Source of the DNA: Solirubrobacterales bacterium
Lineage (GTDB): Bacteria > Actinomycetota > Thermoleophilia > Solirubrobacterales > 70-9
Assembly (NCBI GenBank): GCA_013821475.1
Contig: JACDGU010000003.1
Coordinates: 1 to 48,946 of the forward strand
Direction: 5' to 3'
Length of the DNA stretch: 48,946 nt
The notes beneath the pieces are model-generated. The model worked only from the letters and a program-made list of their open reading frames with translations. It was not told the origin of the DNA and ran no database searches. The position numbers were made by a program, and so were the translations under genes. Positions within the stretch are counted from its first letter, which is position 1; each line of letters opens with the position of its first letter. Positions 23,723-39,240 of the stretch are shown here, one piece after another.

Positions 23723-24199
23723 CTAGAGGTCGTAGCGGGCGAGGTCGGCGTCGAGCCGCTCGGAGTCCTCGGCGCTCGGCCCGGCGGGAGCCGAGTCGTC
23801 GGGATCCGCGTCGCCGCCGGCCCGCCGCCATTTCGCCACGCCGCAGGCAAGCGCGATCACGGCGATTACGAAGGCGACGATCGGGACCAGGTAGGCGGAG
23901 AGGCTGAAGCCCGAGCCCTGCGGCAGCGCCAGCACCGCGTCGCCGTACTCGGCGACCAGCGCGTCCTTGATTTCGCCCTTGCTCTTGCCGGCCCGGACGA
24001 GGCGTTCGACGAAGACTTTCTCGCGCTGGGCCTGCGGCGATTCGGCCAGCTCGAGCAGGGTGCCGCAGACCGGGCACATCACTTCCGACTCGATCTCGGT
24101 CAGCGAGGTCTGCGGCGTCGCCGCGCTGGCCCCGCCCAGCGGCACCGCGACGAGCAACGCCACGGCCAGCACGGCGACGCTTGCCGCGCGCCTCCTCAC
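23723..24199 (-). CDS. ccmH: CcmH-family cytochrome c maturation protein
   Basis: GTG start overlapping the upstream TGA; EIESEVMCPVCGTLLELAESPQAQREKVFVERLVRAGKSKGEIKDALVAEYGDAVLA. Confidence 0.9.
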   Translation of the reverse strand: MRRRAASVAVLAVALLVAVPLGGASAATPQTSLTEIESEVMCPVCGTLLELAESPQAQREKVFVERLVRAGKSKGEIKDALVAEYGDAVLALPQGSGFSLSAYLVPIVAFVIAVIALACGVAKWRRAGGDADPDDSAPAGPSAEDSERLDADLARYDL

Positions 24200-24720
24200 G
24201 AGCGAGTGTCGGGGAGGTACGGTGCCACCGCTTCGCGCAGGTACTGGCCGTCGACCGGCCCGCGCAGCAGCCAGCGCAGCTTCCCCTGTGGGTCGATCAG
24301 GAAGTTCTCCGGGACCCCGGTGGTGCCGAAGTCGTGGGCGGTGTCGCCGTTGCCGTCGCGCAGCTGCGGGTAGCGGAGCCCGTACTTCTCGACGAAGTCC
24401 TTGCCATCGCCGCTGAGGTCGCGGGTGTCGATCCCGAGCACGGTGAAGTCCCGGCCGCCGTGCTGGTGCTGGAAGCGCTCGAGGGCGGGCGCCTCCTGCC
24501 GGCAGGGGACACACCACGAGGCCCAGAAGTTGACCAGTACCCAGCGCCCCCGGTAGGCAGCCAGCGAGCCTTCGCCGCCGCCACCGAGGTCCGGCATCGT
24601 CGGTGCCGGGGCGACTTCCCCGAGCGAGACGCCGGAGGAGCCCTTGCTGAGCAGGCCGTAGGTGAGCAGGCCGACGGCGGCCAGCACGGCAAGGACGGCA
24701 ATCGAGGAACGGATGCTCAT
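24196..24720 (-). CDS. ccmG: Thiol:disulfide interchange protein (CcmG/ResA/TlpA-like)
   Basis: VLVNFWASWCVPCRQEAPALERF; GVPENFLIDPQGKL. Confidence 0.88.
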   Translation of the reverse strand: MSIRSSIAVLAVLAAVGLLTYGLLSKGSSGVSLGEVAPAPTMPDLGGGGEGSLAAYRGRWVLVNFWASWCVPCRQEAPALERFQHQHGGRDFTVLGIDTRDLSGDGKDFVEKYGLRYPQLRDGNGDTAHDFGTTGVPENFLIDPQGKLRWLLRGPVDGQYLREAVAPYLPDTRS

Positions 24721-25707: not shown

Positions 25708-28599
25708 ATGTTTCCTTGGAGGGGAAATGCAACTGGCGCAAGCTGGGGCCGTATCGCGATTGCCGCGATCGCGATGAGCCTGCTCATGGCGAGTCCGGCG
25801 CTGGCCAACACGGGCACGATCATCGCCCCGCAGCACCCGCCGGCCTACACGGCGACGGACGGTTGGCAGGCGGGCACCTGCAAGAAAGACACGCCGACAT
25901 GCAGCGTCGACACCCCCGAACAGTTCTTCGAACAGGCGGCGGGGCATCCCCCCGTCGGCTTCACCCAGTTCATCGTCGAACACACGACCACCACGGTCGG
26001 GCCGCTGACGTTCGAACAGCCGGTGGGGGAACTGGAGACCGTCCGCGTCGATCTCCCCGTCGGCCTCAGCGTCAATCCCGGCGCCACCGAACGCTGCCCC
26101 CTGGCGACCTTCGAAGCCGGTGCCAGCGGTTGTCCGGCCGGATCGAAAGTCGGCGAAAGCGCGGTCACGGCTGCGGCACCGCCGCTCGGGCTGCCAACGG
26201 AACCGGTTCCGGGGGTCACCTTGGTTCCCGTCTACAACGTGATTCCGTCCGCCGGCGAATCGGCCCGCTTCGGCCTCGAACTCGGCGGCAGTGAAGTCTT
26301 CCTCAAAGGCGACGTGGCCTGGGACGGCGACTATCACGAGGGATTCACGATCGCCGTTCCCAAAGCCCTGCCGGCGGCCGTCGAAGGCCTGATCCTCAAG
26401 AACCGACTCGTCTTCAACGGCCAGGCCGGGGACGGGACCTTCATCACCACGCCCAGCACCTGCCTTGGCGCCTCGACGCCGGGTCCATCGGGCAGCCTCT
26501 ACTCGACCTTCCTGCTTGCGGCTTCTTATGAAGAAGAGGCGCAGGCCGGCTATCAGTTCCCGCAGAGCGCCGAGCCGGCATTCGAGTCGCCGATTCCGCC
26601 GGGAACCTCGCCGAAAGAGTGCAACACGATCCCCTACGCGCCGACGGTCGCCGTCCAGCCGGGGACCGCCGAAACCGACTCGCCCGCCGGTGCTCAGGTC
26701 GAGGTCGACGTCCCCCACATCCTCGGCAAAGAAAACCAGGACAGCTCGACGACGCGGAGCGCGTCGGTGACCCTGCCGGGTGGGATGGGGATCAATCCCT
26801 CGGCGGCGAACGGGCTGGCCACCTGCACCGACGCGCAGTTCGCCAAGGGGACCAAAAACCCGATTGCCTGCCCAGCGGCCTCGCGGGTGGGGACGGTTAC
26901 GATCGAGTCCCCGGCACTGCCGGAAGGCAACCTCGAAGGCCCGGTTTTCGTCGGCCAGCAGCTCAGCCGCGACCCGACCTCCGGCCAGGAGTACCGCGTC
27001 TTCGTCGACGCCGAGTCGGCGCGCTACGGGATCTCCGTCCGCCTGGTCGGCAACGTCAGCGCCAACCCGGTGAGCGGGCAGCTGACGACGACCTTTGGCG
27101 AAACCCCGCAGGTCCCGTTCAGCGCCTTCCGGCTGAAGTTCGATCCGGGCGCGCGCGCCGTCCTCAGCAGCCCGCCGATCTGCGGCCCCAACACCACGGC
27201 GACCAAGCTCACCCCGTGGTCCGGCAATCCGGCGGCCAGCCCTTCGCGGACCTTCGCGCTGACCAAGGCGCCCGGCGGTGGTGCCTGCGCGAAGACGATG
27301 GCCGAACGGCCCTTCGCGCCGAGCTTCGCGGCGGCGCCGAAGAAGACCACCGCCGGCGCCTTCAGCCCGCTCTCGATCCACCTCGTCAGGCCCCCCGGGC
27401 AGCAGGAGCTGAAGGGGATCGACATCGAGCTGGCGCCGGGGATGACCGGCAAGCTCGCCGGGATTCCATATTGCAAAGGCCCGGCGCTGGCCGCTGCGGC
27501 GGCGCACTCCGGAGTGGTCGAGCAGGCCAGCTCGAGCTGCCCGGACAAGAGCCTCGTCGGCAGCGCTTCGATCGCAGCCGGGACCGGCACCGCGCCGCTG
27601 AAGATCGCCGGCAATGTCTTCCTCTCAGGCCCCTACCACGGGGCTCCTCTCTCCCTGGCAGTCGTCACCCCTGCCACGGCCGGGCCGTTCGATCTCGGCA
27701 CGACCGTGGTCAGGGTAGCGCTGTTCGTCGATCCCGAAACCGCCCGGATCGACGCTATCTCCGACCCGGTCCCGGACGTCTTCGGTGGCACCAAGCTCAG
27801 CATCCGCTCCGTCGACATCGAGATCAACCGCCCCAACTTCACCCTCAACCCGACCAGCTGTGACCCCCTCGCGACCGAAGCCGTCCTCCACGGCGGCGGC
27901 GCCGACCCCGCCAACCCGGCGGCCTTCAGCGCCTTCCCGGTCAGCGTCCCGTTCCAGACCTCCGACTGCGGGGCGCTGCGCTTCCGGCCGAAGCTCTACA
28001 CGCGGTTGTTCGGCGGGCGCAAGAAGACGAAACGCTCGCAGTTCCCCAAATTCCGCGCCGTCCTCCTCGCCCGCGAAGGCGACGCGAACATCGGCCGCGT
28101 CGCGCTCACCCTGCCCCACTCGGAGTTCCTCGAACAGGGCCACATCGGCACCATCTGCACCCGCGTCCAGCTGGCCGCCGCGGACTGCCCGGCGCGCTCG
28201 ATCTACGGCTACGCGACGGCGCAGACGCCGCTGCTCGACGACGAACTCTCCGGCCCGGTCTACCTGACCTCCTCCAGCCACGAACTGCCGGACCTGCTGG
28301 TCGACCTCAAGGGCCAGGTGGACGTCCGCCTGCGCGGCGTGATCAGCGCCACCAAGGCGAGGATCAAGACCGTCTTCAGCACCGTGCCGGACGTCCCGGT
28401 GAGCAAGTTCACGCTGACCATGCTGGGCGGCAAGCGCGGCCTGCTGGTCAACTCGCGCGATCTCTGCGCCCGGCCCTCTTTCTCCTTCCTCAACTTCAAA
28501 GCCCAGAACGGCAAGCGCTTGCGCAAGAAGCGGCTGCCGTTGAGAATGCCCGCCTGTAGCCGGCACCGTGGCGCGAAGAAGCGCAGCGGCGGCGATTGA
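25708..28599 (+). CDS. Large secreted repeat protein, paralog 1 (unknown function)
   Basis: Signal peptide MFPWRGNATGASWGRIAIAAIAMSLLMASPALA; FFEQAAGHPPVGFT motif; four internal repeats; collinear with the next two ORFs. Confidence 0.85.
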   Translation: MFPWRGNATGASWGRIAIAAIAMSLLMASPALANTGTIIAPQHPPAYTATDGWQAGTCKKDTPTCSVDTPEQFFEQAAGHPPVGFTQFIVEHTTTTVGPLTFEQPVGELETVRVDLPVGLSVNPGATERCPLATFEAGASGCPAGSKVGESAVTAAAPPLGLPTEPVPGVTLVPVYNVIPSAGESARFGLELGGSEVFLKGDVAWDGDYHEGFTIAVPKALPAAVEGLILKNRLVFNGQAGDGTFITTPSTCLGASTPGPSGSLYSTFLLAASYEEEAQAGYQFPQSAEPAFESPIPPGTSPKECNTIPYAPTVAVQPGTAETDSPAGAQVEVDVPHILGKENQDSSTTRSASVTLPGGMGINPSAANGLATCTDAQFAKGTKNPIACPAASRVGTVTIESPALPEGNLEGPVFVGQQLSRDPTSGQEYRVFVDAESARYGISVRLVGNVSANPVSGQLTTTFGETPQVPFSAFRLKFDPGARAVLSSPPICGPNTTATKLTPWSGNPAASPSRTFALTKAPGGGACAKTMAERPFAPSFAAAPKKTTAGAFSPLSIHLVRPPGQQELKGIDIELAPGMTGKLAGIPYCKGPALAAAAAHSGVVEQASSSCPDKSLVGSASIAAGTGTAPLKIAGNVFLSGPYHGAPLSLAVVTPATAGPFDLGTTVVRVALFVDPETARIDAISDPVPDVFGGTKLSIRSVDIEINRPNFTLNPTSCDPLATEAVLHGGGADPANPAAFSAFPVSVPFQTSDCGALRFRPKLYTRLFGGRKKTKRSQFPKFRAVLLAREGDANIGRVALTLPHSEFLEQGHIGTICTRVQLAAADCPARSIYGYATAQTPLLDDELSGPVYLTSSSHELPDLLVDLKGQVDVRLRGVISATKARIKTVFSTVPDVPVSKFTLTMLGGKRGLLVNSRDLCARPSFSFLNFKAQNGKRLRKKRLPLRMPACSRHRGAKKRSGGD

Positions 28600-28687
28600 T
28601 CCAAGCCGGCAGCGGGTACGTTGTGGCCAGGGGTTGGCAACGCCGACGATGAGACGCAGGTATGGGACAACTGCAGAAGGAGATTCG

Positions 28688-31510
28688 ATGAGCAGCAGGA
28701 CCGGGATTCTGGGTGCGATCATGGCGTTGGTCGCGTTGTCGCTTGCCGTGAGCGCTCCGGCGGCCGGCGCCGTCGACATCATCGAAGTTCAGTCAGAAAC
28801 GGCGCAGGCCGGTTGGCAGGCCGGAACCTGCCAGCTCGATCCCACCAATGAATGTTCCCCGGCCAAACCATCGCTCTTCTTCACGCAGGCGGCAGGGCAT
28901 CCGCCGGTGGGCTTCACTCAAATCATCGTCAAACACGGCACCGGCGCCGGGGAACCGCCGGTGGGGGACCTGAAAACCGTGCGCGTCGACCTGCCGCCCG
29001 GCCTCAGCGTCAACCCGCAGGCCACGGAACAGTGCTCGGTAGCCAATTTCAAAGCCAGTACCTGCCCGATCGGCTCAAAAGTCGGCGAAAGCTTCGTCAC
29101 CGCGAGCGCGCCGCCAATCACCGTGCCACTGACGGCGGCCGTCTACAACATCCAACCGGTGAACGGAGAACCGGCCCGGTTCGGGTTCATCCTCGCCGGC
29201 ACCGAAGTGATCCTCGAAGCCGGGGTCTCCTGGAGCACCGACTATCACGAGTACTTCACGATCCACGTCTCCAAAGTCGAACTGCCGCTGGGGCTGCTCG
29301 AAGCGCTGATCCCGGTGAAGATCCTCAAAAATCGTCTGGTCTTCAACGGCACCACTGGCCAGGGCGGTGCAGGCGGGGCCTTCCTCACGACCCCGAGCAC
29401 CTGCTTCAACCCGGAAGCGGATCCGTACCGGCACATCTACTCCACCTTCCTTCGCGCCGACTCCTACCAGGAACCTGCCGCGGGCTTCCCGGCCGGCTCC
29501 CAGGAACTCGAGGCTCCGCTGCCGAAAGGGGTGAAACCGACTGGCTGCGCCAACGTCCCGTTCAAGCCCTCGGTCGCTGCCGTGCCGGCGACTGTGCAGA
29601 CGGATTCGCCGGACGGACCGACGGTGGAAGTCGGCGTGCCCTTCGAAAGCGCCGCCGCGATCGCCAACTCGAACCTCCGCACCGCCCGGGTCTCGCTGCC
29701 CGTGGGCGAGGGCCTCAACCCTTCCGCCGCGACGGGGCTGCAGGCCTGCACCGACGCCCAGTTCGGCAAAGGGACGACCGCTGCGGTGGCATGTCCGGCC
29801 CCCTCGGAAGTCGGCACCGTCGCGATCCAGACGCCGGTGCTGCCGCCCAACTCCCTCACCGGCAAGGTCTATCTCGGCCAGCAGCTCAGCCGCGATCCAA
29901 CCTCAGGCAACGAGTACCGGATCTTCATCGACGCCGAGTCGGCGCGCTATGGCCAGTCCGTGCGCCTCGTCGGCAACGTCAGCGCGAATCCGAAAACGGG
30001 GCAGCTGACGGCAACGGTCAGTGAGGCACCGCAACTCCCGTTCACCTCGGTGAGCGTCAAGTTCAGCGGCACCAAAGGCGTTCTCACCAGCCCGCCGACC
30101 TGCGGCCCCAACCGCACGACTGGACTGCTGACGCCCTGGTCGGGCACCGCCGACGCCAGCATCGCCGACAAAGGCTTCACCCTGACCAAAGCGCCCGGCG
30201 GCGGCGCCTGCGCGAAGACGATGGCCCAGCGGCCCTTCGCACCGGGCTTCACCGCCCAGCCCGGGACCGGTGCGGCACTTGCCTACACGCCGTTCTCCGT
30301 CCACATCACCCGGCCCCAGGGTCAGCAGGAGCTGAAAGGCGTCGACCTGACGCTGCCCCCGGGGGCGACGGCAAAGCTCGCCGGCGTTCCCTACTGCCCG
30401 CCCTCCGACTTCAACGCGGCGGCGACCAAGTCGGGTGCCGCCGAGAAGAAAAATCCCAGCTGTCCCAACGACAGCAAGGTCGGTGTCGCCACGATTCAGG
30501 CCGGCACCGGCGCCATCCCGCTGGAGATCGAAGGCACCGCCTACCTCGCCGGCCCTTATAAAGGTGCCCCGCTCTCGATCGTCGTAGTCACCCCGGCCCT
30601 GGCGGGCCCGTTCGACCTCGGCACGGTCGTCGTCCGGGTGGCGCTGTTCCTCGATCCGGAAACGGCACAGATCCACCCGGTCGCGGAAATCCCCGACGTC
30701 TTCGGCGGTGCCAAGCTCGACATCCGCTCGATCGCCGTCAACGTCAACCGCAAGGAATTCACCCTCAACGGGACCAACTGCCAGAAAGGCGCGACCGCGG
30801 GTGTGCTGCGCGGGGGCGGGGCGGATCCGACCAACCCGGCGGCCTTCTCCTCGGCGCCGGTCTCCGACGCCTTCCAGGGGACCGGCTGTAAGCCGCTCAA
30901 GTTCAAGCCGAAGCTGAAGCTGCGGCTGTTCGGCGCGACCAAGCGCAACAAGAACCCGCGCCTGCGGGCGGCCCTCAACACCAAGCCCGGCAACGCCAAC
31001 CTGGCGCGGGTCTCGGTTGCACTGCCGCACGCGCTGTTCCTCGACCAGGCGAGCCTCTCGAAGGTCTGCACCCGGGTCCAGTTCGCCGCCCAGAATTGTC
31101 CGAAGAAGTCGATCTACGGCCACGCCCGCGCCTTCTCACCGCTGCTCGGCAAGCCGCTCGAAGGGCCGGTCTACCTGCGCTCCTCGAACAACCTGCTGCC
31201 GGACATGGTCGCCCACCTCGAAGGCCAGGTAGACATCGATCTGGACGGTCGGATCGACAGCTACAAGGGCGGCATCCGCACCACCTTCGACCGCGTCCCC
31301 GACGTCCCGGTGAGCAAATTCGTGCTGACGCTCCCCGGCGGCAAGCACGGCCTCCTCGTCGCCTCGACCAACCTCTGCAAGAAACCGGTGAAGGCGATCG
31401 TCCAGCTCAAAGGACAGAACGGCAAGAAGGCCAACCGGCACATGAAAGTGCGCACCCCCTGCGGCAAAAAGCACAAGAAGCAGGGGAAGCACAAGCAGCA
31501 CAAGCACTGA
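28688..31510 (+). CDS. Large secreted repeat protein, paralog 2 (unknown function)
   Basis: RBS AAGGAG upstream of ATG; signal peptide MSSRTGILGAIMALVALSLAVSAPAAGA; FFTQAAGHPPVGFT; four internal repeats. Confidence 0.9.
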   Translation: MSSRTGILGAIMALVALSLAVSAPAAGAVDIIEVQSETAQAGWQAGTCQLDPTNECSPAKPSLFFTQAAGHPPVGFTQIIVKHGTGAGEPPVGDLKTVRVDLPPGLSVNPQATEQCSVANFKASTCPIGSKVGESFVTASAPPITVPLTAAVYNIQPVNGEPARFGFILAGTEVILEAGVSWSTDYHEYFTIHVSKVELPLGLLEALIPVKILKNRLVFNGTTGQGGAGGAFLTTPSTCFNPEADPYRHIYSTFLRADSYQEPAAGFPAGSQELEAPLPKGVKPTGCANVPFKPSVAAVPATVQTDSPDGPTVEVGVPFESAAAIANSNLRTARVSLPVGEGLNPSAATGLQACTDAQFGKGTTAAVACPAPSEVGTVAIQTPVLPPNSLTGKVYLGQQLSRDPTSGNEYRIFIDAESARYGQSVRLVGNVSANPKTGQLTATVSEAPQLPFTSVSVKFSGTKGVLTSPPTCGPNRTTGLLTPWSGTADASIADKGFTLTKAPGGGACAKTMAQRPFAPGFTAQPGTGAALAYTPFSVHITRPQGQQELKGVDLTLPPGATAKLAGVPYCPPSDFNAAATKSGAAEKKNPSCPNDSKVGVATIQAGTGAIPLEIEGTAYLAGPYKGAPLSIVVVTPALAGPFDLGTVVVRVALFLDPETAQIHPVAEIPDVFGGAKLDIRSIAVNVNRKEFTLNGTNCQKGATAGVLRGGGADPTNPAAFSSAPVSDAFQGTGCKPLKFKPKLKLRLFGATKRNKNPRLRAALNTKPGNANLARVSVALPHALFLDQASLSKVCTRVQFAAQNCPKKSIYGHARAFSPLLGKPLEGPVYLRSSNNLLPDMVAHLEGQVDIDLDGRIDSYKGGIRTTFDRVPDVPVSKFVLTLPGGKHGLLVASTNLCKKPVKAIVQLKGQNGKKANRHMKVRTPCGKKHKKQGKHKQHKH

Positions 31511-31516
31511 GCCGCG

Positions 31517-31533
31517 AGCGCCGCTGGGGCGCT
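31517..31533 (+). terminator. Candidate hairpin after paralog 2
   Basis: AGCGCC-GCTGG-GGCGCT followed by TTT. Confidence 0.5.
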
Positions 31534-31678
31534 TTGAACCGGATCTCCAATCCATACCGGACTTGATTCTTGGTCGTGTGACCAGCTAGTCTCGCCAGTG
31601 GGAACAGTCCTGGGAAGGCTGTGAGTAGCGTCATGCAGGGGCGGCGTTGTCCGCTCATTGGGGAATACAGGAGGGTTT

Positions 31679-34465
31679 ATGGCTAGGCGCTTGTTGCTCG
31701 TGTTTGCCGTGATGGCTTTGGGTGCCGTTTTCGTGGCGCCCGCTGCGCACGCGGCTTTCGGGATCGAAAAATGGGAATCGCTCACCTGCAACGCAGATGA
31801 AGAGACCCCGAAAGTCGGTGAAGAACCAATTGTCGGCAAACCGCCGTTGCCGCCCCCGGCGGGTCGCTGCACTGGGGCCACCGCCGGCAAATTCTTCACT
31901 CAAGCCGCCGGCCACCCGGACTTCGGGATCACCGACTTCACCCTCAATACCATCGCCACTCCAGGAGCAATCGGCTTCCCCGAAGGCTTCATTAAAAGAA
32001 TCGTCGTGAACACGCCCGAAGGATTGAGCGTCAATCCGGAAGCGGTGCCACAGTGCTCGCTCGCTCAGCTGAGCATCAACAAATGCCCGGCTGCGTCCCA
32101 GGTGGGAGTCAACTACCTGACGTTTGCGGCTCAGACGCCGCCCTGTACGGTGCCCTTCGCGGGCAAATGCGCGAACGGCCGAGTGGCGCTCCCGGTCTTC
32201 AACATGGTTCCGTTCGAAGGCGTGCCATCGATGGTGACGTTCCTGACCGAAACGGGAGCGACCTTCATCGTCGGTTCGCTCGACCCGGTTGATCAGCATG
32301 TCATCTTCACGATCGACCCGGTGCACCTGCCTCAGGCCGGGCCGCCGAAAAGCCCCCCTGTGGTCGGATCGAGGTTGGTCTTCAACGGCAAAGCTGGCAA
32401 CGGCACCTATCTGACGATGCCGAGCAACTGCGCCGGCGGTCAGATCACGAAACTCAACGTCAACTCCTACGAAGGTGGGGCCGACGAAGAATCGTATGAA
32501 ACGTCGGTCGGAGCCGAAGGCTGCGAAAACGTGCCCTTCAAACCGACGATCGCCGTCACGCCTCAGGGCGGCGCTGTCGACTCGCCGGAAGCGACCACCG
32601 TCAACGTGGGGATTCCGTTTGACGCGACGAAAGCAATCGCCAACTCGTACCTGAAAGAAGCGAAAGTGACGCTGCCCGAAGGGATGGGCCTGAATCCGGC
32701 TTCGGCCAACGGGCTCGTCGCCTGCACCGATGCGCAGTTCGGCTACCACACGAACAACCCGATCGCCTGCCCGGTCGCATCGCAGATCGGCACCGTCGAG
32801 GTCCAGACCCCGTCGCTGCCGGCTGACTCGCTGACCGGTGAGGTCTACGTCGGCCAGCCGAAAAGCAACGACCCGAGCAGCGGCGAACAGTTCCGGATCT
32901 TCATCCACGCCGGATCCACCCGCTACGGGGTCAACGTGCGCCTGATCGGGCACGTGTTCCCGAACCTGGCGACCGGTCAGCTGACCGCCGTCGTGCCGGA
33001 AAACCCGCAGGCGACGTTCAGCTCCTTCAAGCTCCGCTTCTTCGGCGGCGCCAAAGGCACGCTGACCTCGCCCCCCACCTGCGGTCCCAACGTCACGACG
33101 ACGTTGATGACCCCGTGGTCGGGTCACGCCGACGCGAACACCCCGACCGGGAGCTTCGTGCTCACCAGCGATCCGAGCGGCGGCAGCTGCCCGGCGACGC
33201 TGGGCGCGCGTCCGTTCAATCCCGGCTACACGGCAAAGTCGAACAGCAGCGCGGCCCGGGCCTACAGCCCGTTCACGGTGCACATCGGGCGCGCCGACGG
33301 GCAGCAGGAGCTGAAAGCGGTCAACGTGACCCTGCCGAAGGGTCTCGTCGGCAACCTCAGCGGCATCCCCTACTGCTCCGCAGGCGCCCTCGCGGCGGCG
33401 GCGGCCAGCAGCGGTGTGGCTCAGCTCGCCAATTACAGCTGTCCCGCGGCAAGCGAAATCGGCACCACGACGACCGCCGCCGGCAGTGGCAGCGGCCCGA
33501 TCAAGATCGCCGGCAAGGCATTCCTCGCCGGTCCTTACAAGGGGGCGCCGCTGTCGATGGCGATCATCACCCCGGGTGTCGCCGGTCCTTACGACGTCGG
33601 CACGATTGTCGTCCGGGTGGCGCTCAACGTGAATCCCGAAACCGCCCAGATCAACGCGGTCTCGGATCCGATTCCGAACGTGTTCGGCGGGGTCAAGCTG
33701 GACATCCGCTCGATCGACGTCAACGTCGACAGGACGAAGTTCATGCTCAACCCGACCAGTTGCGCGGCCCAGGCAACGACCGGTGCGATCAACGGTGGCG
33801 GCTCCAACCCCGCCAACCCGGCCGCGTTCAGCTCCTACGCGGTCAGCGATCCGTACTCGGCGACGGGCTGTGACAGCCTGAAGTTCAAGCCGAAGCTGCA
33901 CGTCCGGCTCAAGGGCGGGACGACGAGGAACAAGAACCCGCAGCTGCGGGCCGTGCTGGAAGCACGGGAAGGCGACGCCAACATCAGCCGCACCGCGTTG
34001 ACGATGCCGCACTCGCTGTTCCTCGATCAAAGCCACATCGGCACCGTCTGCACCCGGCCGCAGCTGGCCACGCAGACCTGCCCGGCCGCGTCGATCTACG
34101 GCAAGGCGGAAGCGGTGACGCCGCTGCTCAGCGAAAAGCTGAAGGGCAACGTCTACCTCGTCTCCTCCGACCACAAATTGCCGGACCTGCTCGCCGATCT
34201 GCGCGGTCAGGTGAACATCCAGTTGCGCGGCGTCATCAGCTCCCAGAAAGGCGGGCTGAAGACGGTGTTCAACTCGGTGCCGGACGTGCCGGTGAAGAAG
34301 TTCGTGCTCAACATGAACGGCGGCAAGAAGAGCCTGTTGGTCAACTCGACCAACACCTGCAAGGGCAAGCAGTTCGCCGTGCTCAACATCAAGGGGCAGA
34401 ACGGCGCTCAGGTCAAGAACAACAAGTTCGGCCTGAACATCGCCTCCTGCGGCAAGAAGAAGTAA
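31679..34465 (+). CDS. Large secreted repeat protein, paralog 3 (unknown function)
   Basis: RBS CAGGAGGG; signal peptide MARRLLLVFAVMALGAVFVAPAAHA; FFTQAAGHPDFGIT; four internal repeats. Confidence 0.9.
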   Translation: MARRLLLVFAVMALGAVFVAPAAHAAFGIEKWESLTCNADEETPKVGEEPIVGKPPLPPPAGRCTGATAGKFFTQAAGHPDFGITDFTLNTIATPGAIGFPEGFIKRIVVNTPEGLSVNPEAVPQCSLAQLSINKCPAASQVGVNYLTFAAQTPPCTVPFAGKCANGRVALPVFNMVPFEGVPSMVTFLTETGATFIVGSLDPVDQHVIFTIDPVHLPQAGPPKSPPVVGSRLVFNGKAGNGTYLTMPSNCAGGQITKLNVNSYEGGADEESYETSVGAEGCENVPFKPTIAVTPQGGAVDSPEATTVNVGIPFDATKAIANSYLKEAKVTLPEGMGLNPASANGLVACTDAQFGYHTNNPIACPVASQIGTVEVQTPSLPADSLTGEVYVGQPKSNDPSSGEQFRIFIHAGSTRYGVNVRLIGHVFPNLATGQLTAVVPENPQATFSSFKLRFFGGAKGTLTSPPTCGPNVTTTLMTPWSGHADANTPTGSFVLTSDPSGGSCPATLGARPFNPGYTAKSNSSAARAYSPFTVHIGRADGQQELKAVNVTLPKGLVGNLSGIPYCSAGALAAAAASSGVAQLANYSCPAASEIGTTTTAAGSGSGPIKIAGKAFLAGPYKGAPLSMAIITPGVAGPYDVGTIVVRVALNVNPETAQINAVSDPIPNVFGGVKLDIRSIDVNVDRTKFMLNPTSCAAQATTGAINGGGSNPANPAAFSSYAVSDPYSATGCDSLKFKPKLHVRLKGGTTRNKNPQLRAVLEAREGDANISRTALTMPHSLFLDQSHIGTVCTRPQLATQTCPAASIYGKAEAVTPLLSEKLKGNVYLVSSDHKLPDLLADLRGQVNIQLRGVISSQKGGLKTVFNSVPDVPVKKFVLNMNGGKKSLLVNSTNTCKGKQFAVLNIKGQNGAQVKNNKFGLNIASCGKKK

Positions 34466-34493: not shown

Positions 34494-34533
34494 GCACCGA
34501 CGCGGAAGGCCAATTAGCCTCCCGCGTCGGTGC
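34494..34533. repeat. Strong 17-bp-arm inverted repeat overlapping the GT2 start codon
   Basis: GCACCGACGCGGAAGGC-CAATTA-GCCTCCCGCGTCGGTGC, one mismatch. Confidence 0.8.
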
Positions 34534-35573
34534 AACCGTCGCTCTCAATCCTGATCGTCGCCTGGAACAGCCGTGAGGAGCTGAACCGGACGATTCCGGC
34601 GCTGCTCCCGGAGCTGGGCGACGGCGACGAGCTGGTGATCGTGGACAACGATTCCAGCGACGGCACAACCGAGGCCCTGCTCGAGCTGGCGCCCAAGGCA
34701 CGGATCCTGCAGATGGGGCGCAACGCCGGCTTCGCCGCCGCCTGCAACGCCGGCGCCGCCGTGGCCATGGGAGGCCTGCTCGTCATCCTCAATCCCGATG
34801 CGGCGCCGCTGCCGGGCTTCGGCGAGGCGATCCGCAGGCCCTGGCTCGAAGGCCGCGACTGGGCCGCGTGGCAGGCGCTGGTCGCCGAGGAGGGGGGGAC
34901 GCGGATCAACTCAGTCGGCAACCCGGTCCACTTCACCGGGATCGTCTGGGCCGGCGGCCACGGGCGCCCGCTCGCCGAGGCTCCCCCGGCCGGCGAGGTC
35001 ATCGCCCTCTCCGGCGCCTGTCTGGCGATCCCGCTCGCGACCTGGCGCCAGCTCGGCGGCTTCCCCGAGCATTTCTTCCTCTACCACGAGGACGTCGACC
35101 TCTCGCTGCGGCTGCGGCTGCGCGGCGACACCCTCGGGATCGAACCGGCGGCGGTCGTCGCCCACGACTACGAGTTCGGCGCCAGCACCCAGAAGTGGCG
35201 CTGGCTGGAGCGCAACCGCCTCGCCTTCCTCGTCCGCGTCTACCCGGCCCCGTTGCTGGTCCTGCTGGCGCCGATGCTGCTGGCAACCGAGCTGGCCCTG
35301 TTCGTCGTCTCGAGTCGCCGCGGCTGGGGAGGCCAGAAGTTGACCGCCGACCGCGAAGCGCTGCGCTGGCTGCCGCGGCTGCTGCGCGAGCGCCGCCAGA
35401 TCCAGCGCACCCGCGCCGTCAGCAGCGCCGAGTTCGCCTCCTGGCTTACTCCCGATCTCGACTCGCCCTACATCGCCGCCGCCGCCCGCTCGGGGCCCGC
35501 CCGCCTGCTCCTGCGCGGCTACTGGCGCGCAGTCCGGCTCCTGCTCGGCCGCGGCCATTCCATGGTTCCTTAA
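34530..35573 (+). CDS. Glycosyltransferase family 2 (rhamnosyltransferase-like)
   Basis: SLSILIVAWNSREELNRTIPAL...LVIVDNDSSDGTTEAL...GRNAGFAAACNAGAA...LNPDAAP...FFLYHEDVDLSLRLRLRG. Confidence 0.93.
   Translation: MQPSLSILIVAWNSREELNRTIPALLPELGDGDELVIVDNDSSDGTTEALLELAPKARILQMGRNAGFAAACNAGAAVAMGGLLVILNPDAAPLPGFGEAIRRPWLEGRDWAAWQALVAEEGGTRINSVGNPVHFTGIVWAGGHGRPLAEAPPAGEVIALSGACLAIPLATWRQLGGFPEHFFLYHEDVDLSLRLRLRGDTLGIEPAAVVAHDYEFGASTQKWRWLERNRLAFLVRVYPAPLLVLLAPMLLATELALFVVSSRRGWGGQKLTADREALRWLPRLLRERRQIQRTRAVSSAEFASWLTPDLDSPYIAAAARSGPARLLLRGYWRAVRLLLGRGHSMVP

Positions 35574-36798: not shown

Positions 36799-36806
<8 letters not shown>
36396..36806 (+). CDS. ccmE: Cytochrome c maturation protein CcmE
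   Basis: GTG start; N-terminal TM then YEMTGTVVPGTIRKRGEGIAFRVSD...IPVTYHGTVPDPFRGGREIVLTGAMQSGTFVGEPETLITKCPSKF. Confidence 0.9.

Positions 36807-39240
<2,434 letters not shown>

What the first reader, a model, noticed from the sequence alone, without database searches (positions are those of the whole stretch)
26040..28470. Four internal copies of one ~220-240 aa domain inside each paralog
Each protein breaks into four units opening with a beta-strand motif xVxLPxG (P1: VRVDLPVGLSVNP, ASVTLPGGMGINP, IDIELAPGMTGKL, VALTLPHSEFLEQ). Each unit continues with a Cys, then 10-30 aa later 'CP..S.VG/YG' (CPAGSKVGES, CPAASRVGTV, CPDKSLVGSA, CPARSIYGYA), then 'LxGxV[YF]', and ends with a Cys (PSTC, PPIC, NPTSC, SRDLC). 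Unit starts in P1 are ~26040, 26761, 27418 and 28099. P2 (~28979, 29686, 30343, 31011) and P3 (~32000, 32662, 33325, 33994) have the same layout. Reading: an ancestral extracellular beta-domain with conserved cysteines quadruplicated, then the whole gene triplicated, giving 12 copies in 8.7 kb.
Basis: seen in the sequence. Interest (0 to 1): 0.8.

Follow-up and report, generated by a model that had tools for sequence, protein, structure and literature searches.

The report
Modular bacterial surface proteins, repeated domains
Three neighbouring genes of a soil actinobacterium each encode a secreted protein made of two alternating, related beta-domains (A-B-A-B); they belong to an undescribed, order-restricted family whose members range from 2 to 32 such domains and are usually paired with a beta-propeller protein, so they look like adjustable-length surface scaffolds.

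Summary
P1, P2 and P3 (window 25708-34465) are secreted paralogs (46-55% identical), each with four homologous ~190-240 aa beta units. All six unit-unit profile comparisons succeed (scores 50-131; reversed/shuffled controls at most 30), and a predicted structure (pLDDT 85.8) gives all four the same strand order. Two refinements. First, the units are of two alternating types: U1 and U3 group together, as do U2 and U4 (100/99), so the protein is (A-B)2. Relatives have one pair (~500-600 aa) or up to 16 pairs (32 units, 7223 aa), always alternating. Second, the gene triplication predates the genus; the same site carries one copy in two sister-genus genomes. The family has at least 21 copies in this 2.7 Mb genome, occurs in 117 of 232 genomes of the order, and was not found in samples from outside it. 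It matched no Pfam, NCBIfam, PHROG or PDB sequence model. Each unit has an invariant Cys pair plus a second pair that appears to staple consecutive units. In this genome 16 of 21 copies lie directly downstream of a secreted beta-propeller/Fn3-like protein. Best explanation: a modular surface or matrix scaffold (stalk), with the partner as likely binding head. Architecture is shown; function is inferred.

The parts
25708..28599 (+). P1, 963 aa, secreted four-unit protein (start codon uncertain)
   Evidence: ORF and homology; model
25903..26619 (+). P1 unit U1 (type A, N-terminal cap)
   Evidence: unit HMM
26620..27285 (+). P1 unit U2 (type B)
27286..27966 (+). P1 unit U3 (type A)
27967..28542 (+). 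P1 unit U4 (type B, C-terminal cap), followed by basic tail
28688..31510 (+). P2, 940 aa, secreted four-unit protein
28856..29545 (+). P2 unit U1 (A)
29546..30208 (+). P2 unit U2 (B)
30209..30886 (+). P2 unit U3 (A)
30887..31450 (+). P2 unit U4 (B), followed by Lys/His-rich tail
31679..34465 (+). P3, 928 aa, secreted four-unit protein
31871..32521 (+). P3 unit U1 (A)
32522..33187 (+). P3 unit U2 (B)
33188..33868 (+). P3 unit U3 (A)
33869..34432 (+). P3 unit U4 (B)
34530..35573 (+). Glycosyltransferase family 2, directly downstream of the trio in the window and in three genus relatives (L077, L078, L079)
   Evidence: Pfam; synteny

Best explanation
P1-P3 are members of a family of Sec-exported surface or matrix proteins built as N-cap, [B-A]n, C-cap, that is (A-B)n+1, from two related beta-domain types; here n = 1. 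Shown: the repeats, the strict A/B alternation, the size series from 2 to 32 units, the Cys conservation, the gene expansion and the partner gene. Inferred: the chain is an extended rod whose length is set by the number of A-B pairs; one disulfide closes each unit (Cys a-b) and a second (Cys c-d) staples a unit's end to the start of the next; the basic C-terminus holds the protein on the anionic cell wall or matrix; and in most family loci of this genome the rod works with the co-encoded NHL/PD40 propeller and Fn3-like protein, which would be the ligand- or glycan-binding head. Likely outcome: adhesion, aggregation or matrix building in soil.
For: Unit homology against controls; U1+U3 versus U2+U4 split 100/99 and position-wise clustering; two-unit, four-unit and 20- to 32-unit relatives, always alternating; model with four like units, pLDDT 85.8; Cys a present in 401/401 and b in 400/401 units, and all 13 B units lacking Cys c also lack Cys d; positively charged C-terminal tails in most members; at least 21 paralogs in the genome; 16 of 21 paralogs directly downstream of the partner (Pfam), and 16 of 17 partner loci next to a family member; best structural neighbours of U3 and U4 are Gram-positive adhesin and pilin domains, Z 7.7-8.6.
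Against: No ligand, localisation or expression data. Z of 7-9 is near the background given for such models, and U2 alone matched nothing above Z 5.1 (that model was weak, pLDDT 71). No sortase motif or membrane anchor seen. The window trio itself lacks the propeller partner. Disulfides are inferred from conservation and co-loss, and the co-losses include orthologous giants, so perhaps six or seven independent events.
Confidence: 0.5

Rival explanations
1. Structural coat: the proteins form an S-layer-like or wall-coating lattice and many paralogs are variants of the coat, with no specific ligand.
For: High copy number, regular Cys-rich beta units, basic tails.
Against: Paralogs are highly divergent (37-53% identity) and members range from 2 to 32 units; coat proteins are usually one or few. 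Pairing with propeller proteins suggests ligand recognition.
Confidence: 0.2
2. Secreted capture or processing pair: the A-B units bind a polymer or nutrient (glycan, metal, heme) and the propeller partner processes it, with paralogs tuned to different substrates.
For: The two-gene cassette is repeated about 16 times with divergent members, like substrate-specific uptake pairs; an HtaA-domain gene lies next to one member.
Against: No catalytic residues recognised, no transporter genes seen in the cassette, and no Pfam match in the units.
Confidence: 0.2
3. The four segments are unrelated beta-domains that share only a compositional motif.
For: BLASTP finds no internal similarity.
Against: All profile comparisons exceed the controls, secondary structure matches, and units are freely repeated in giant relatives.
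Confidence: 0.02

Closest known systems
Giant Ig-like repeat adhesins (Mobiluncus mulieris 7651-residue adhesin with 51 Ig-like domains, PMC10619420)
   Same: Secreted chains of tandem beta-domains of variable number, with covalent cross-links, in Actinomycetota; similar extreme length.
   Different: That protein has an N-terminal adhesin domain, isopeptide/ester bonds and a C-terminal LPxTG anchor; here two strictly alternating domain types, only Cys-based links (inferred), a basic tail and no LPxTG seen. No sequence similarity was found by the searches run here.
MSCRAMM-type collagen adhesins (Cna, Ace) and sortase pilins
   Same: Best structural neighbours of U3/U4, about 125-146 residues aligned, Z 7.3-8.6.
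   Different: 4-10% identity, Z near background, no LPxTG; the unit is longer, has its own four-Cys pattern and comes as A-B pairs.
DUF11 (PF01345)
   Same: A weak match to the N-terminal extension of one paralog.
   Different: Concerns only an added N-terminal domain absent from P1-P3; below the gathering score.

Membership tests
MSCRAMM / Cna-like adhesin | DEv-IgG fold of the binding domains | tested here: inconclusive
   Best Z 8.6, rmsd 4.8, 141 residues aligned to Ace on U4; U2 alone Z at most 5.1
MSCRAMM / Cna-like adhesin | C-terminal LPXTG sortase signal with membrane segment | tested here: not met
   P1-P3 end in a Cys followed by a Lys/Arg/His-rich tail; other members likewise or with a basic C-terminal region
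MSCRAMM / Cna-like adhesin | Ligand binding (collagen, fibrinogen) | not testable with these tools
   needs binding assay
Giant Ig-like repeat adhesins | Tandem array of many copies of one beta-domain in one secreted chain | tested here: met
   4 units here; 20-32 in relatives
Giant Ig-like repeat adhesins | Intramolecular isopeptide or ester cross-links | not tested
Any Pfam / NCBIfam / PHROG family | Match of P1-P3 to a library profile | tested here: not met
   0 families; no PDB sequence relative of P3

The most novel reading that the evidence does not exclude
A lineage-specific two-gene surface system of Solirubrobacterales: an (A-B)n disulfide-stapled rod of adjustable length plus a propeller/Fn3 head protein, present in about 16 divergent cassettes in this genome, acting as a new kind of non-sortase, electrostatically held surface appendage.
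Probability: 0.3. Interest if true: 0.78.

Novelty: new variant of a known kind. Interest (0 to 1): 0.6.

Why it matters
Solirubrobacterales are common in soil yet poorly characterised at the bench, and a large secreted family in half of the order's genomes appears to lack any named domain. In this assembly the family open frames plus their partners add up to about 4-5% of the bases (upper estimate, from the open-frame lengths). The 2-to-32 unit series with strict A/B alternation is also a clean natural case of length evolution by copying a two-domain cassette, and the two alternating types, the predicted inter-unit disulfides and the partner are directly testable.

Tried and rejected
BLASTP self-comparison found nothing and is too weak here. 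Pfam, NCBIfam, PHROG and PDB-sequence scans were empty; plasmids empty. Foldseek on the whole model gave only partial matches to multi-domain beta chains such as integrins, complement and fimbriae, with TM-scores of 0.2 or less, judged to be general beta-sandwich similarity. U2 folded alone gave a weaker model (pLDDT 71) and no useful neighbour; this does not show that its fold is new. Idea that the family is tied to the cytochrome c maturation genes flanking the trio: rejected, because the other paralogs lie elsewhere with a different, conserved neighbour. Literature searches found no description of the family.

Full report
What is there. Three ORFs in tandem on the + strand, P1 (25708-28599, 963 aa), P2 (28688-31510, 940 aa) and P3 (31679-34465, 928 aa), are 46-55% identical end to end. 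By reading, each starts with a Sec-type signal peptide ending in an AxA-like site; each ends in a Cys followed by a short basic tail. P2 and P3 have clear ribosome-binding sites (by reading); the start of P1 is less sure.

The repeat. BLASTP sees no internal similarity. With 46 homologs, profile-profile alignment links all six unit pairs (scores 50-131), against at most 22 for reversed and at most 30 for 60 shuffled comparisons. The AlphaFold model of P1 (pLDDT 85.8, pTM 0.74) has the same succession of strands and short helices in all four units. The coordinates could not be taken out, so a superposition was not made.

Two alternating types. In a tree of 95 units, U1 with U3 and U2 with U4 are separated by a 100/99 branch, and the four positions need only the minimum of three changes (shuffled mean 50.5). 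A second tree with other families of the order gives the same split. Some branches are long, so the placement of individual giant units is unsure.

Size series. Unit HMMs on relatives show: two-unit proteins (~500-600 aa) in five genomes of the same family, whose domains group with U1 and with U4; four-unit proteins in the window and in most relatives; and giants. One giant of 7223 aa in another family of the order has 32 units, U1-(U2-U3)x15-U4; another of 4643 aa has 20. Alternation is strict in these, so the copied module is a two-domain cassette. Whether the two-unit form is ancestral or reduced is not settled.

Cysteines. Each unit has an invariant pair, a and b (401/401 and 400/401). Cys c ends the unit and Cys d is the first Cys of the next unit or of the tail. 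All 13 B units without c also lack d, while three more units lack d only. This fits an a-b and a c-d disulfide, the second stapling neighbours. It is inference, and related giants share some of the losses.

Gene history. The site lies between ccmH/thioredoxin-like genes and an SDR and ccmF gene (Pfam). Genus relatives carry two or three copies there; two sister-genus genomes carry one. P1 and P2 each form a supported clade across the genus (100/100 and 100/99), and the third gene falls in two related subclades. The triplication therefore predates the genus.

Family. The own genome (89.6% complete) has at least 21 members. In the order 117 of 232 genomes have a match. In the class sample all 49 positive genomes belong to this order, and the phylum sample gave none outside it (few candidates scored per genome, so distant members could be missed). 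Named relatives are Solirubrobacterales or other actinobacterial MAGs.

Partner. Directly upstream, on the same strand and nearly overlapping, 16 of 21 paralogs have a ~1000-1600 aa protein (shorter where cut by a contig end) with NHL or PD40 propeller and Fn3/Pur_ac_phosph_N-like matches and a Lys/Arg/His-rich end (one scanned partner gave no Pfam match but aligns to the others). Conversely 16 of 17 places with such a protein adjoin a family member; the exception lies near a contig end. The window trio, its closest relative on C89 and one other member lack it.

Function. Secretion signals, tandem Cys-rich beta units, variable length, basic tails and a propeller partner point to a surface or matrix scaffold. 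Structural neighbours (Ace, Cna, pilins; Z up to 8.6) agree but are near background. The closest working analogue is the giant Ig-like repeat adhesin of Mobiluncus (PMC10619420). The specific role is inference, at about 0.5.

Noticed in passing
L043-L057 (own-genome paralog loci), e.g. L053:389-4363 with L053:4129-7173: Recurrent two-gene cassette: secreted NHL/PD40 propeller + Fn3-like protein with basic C-terminus immediately upstream of a four-unit protein, about 16 times in the genome.
   Followed up: yes
L071/L072 (G042:C7:252500-280500), L127, L128, L129: Giant proteins of 4600-7200 aa built from the same units in one genus of another family of the order.
   Followed up: yes
L044:9096-10301 (-): HtaA-domain (PF04213) protein upstream of a family member that lacks the propeller partner; neighbours at L044:8276-9160, L045:454-1281 and L052:255-1172 share a similar C-terminal ending.
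   Followed up: partly
L043, L044, L046, L047, L048, L052: Several paralogs carry an extra N-terminal domain (DUF11-like by weak match or by eye, one Fn3-like by eye) before unit 1.
   Followed up: partly
window 23723-24720 and 36799-39240: CcmH, thioredoxin-like and CcmF cytochrome c maturation genes flank the array.
   Followed up: partly
G651: A 3.3 Mb genome with 104 first-look candidates, possibly the largest expansion of the family.
   Followed up: no
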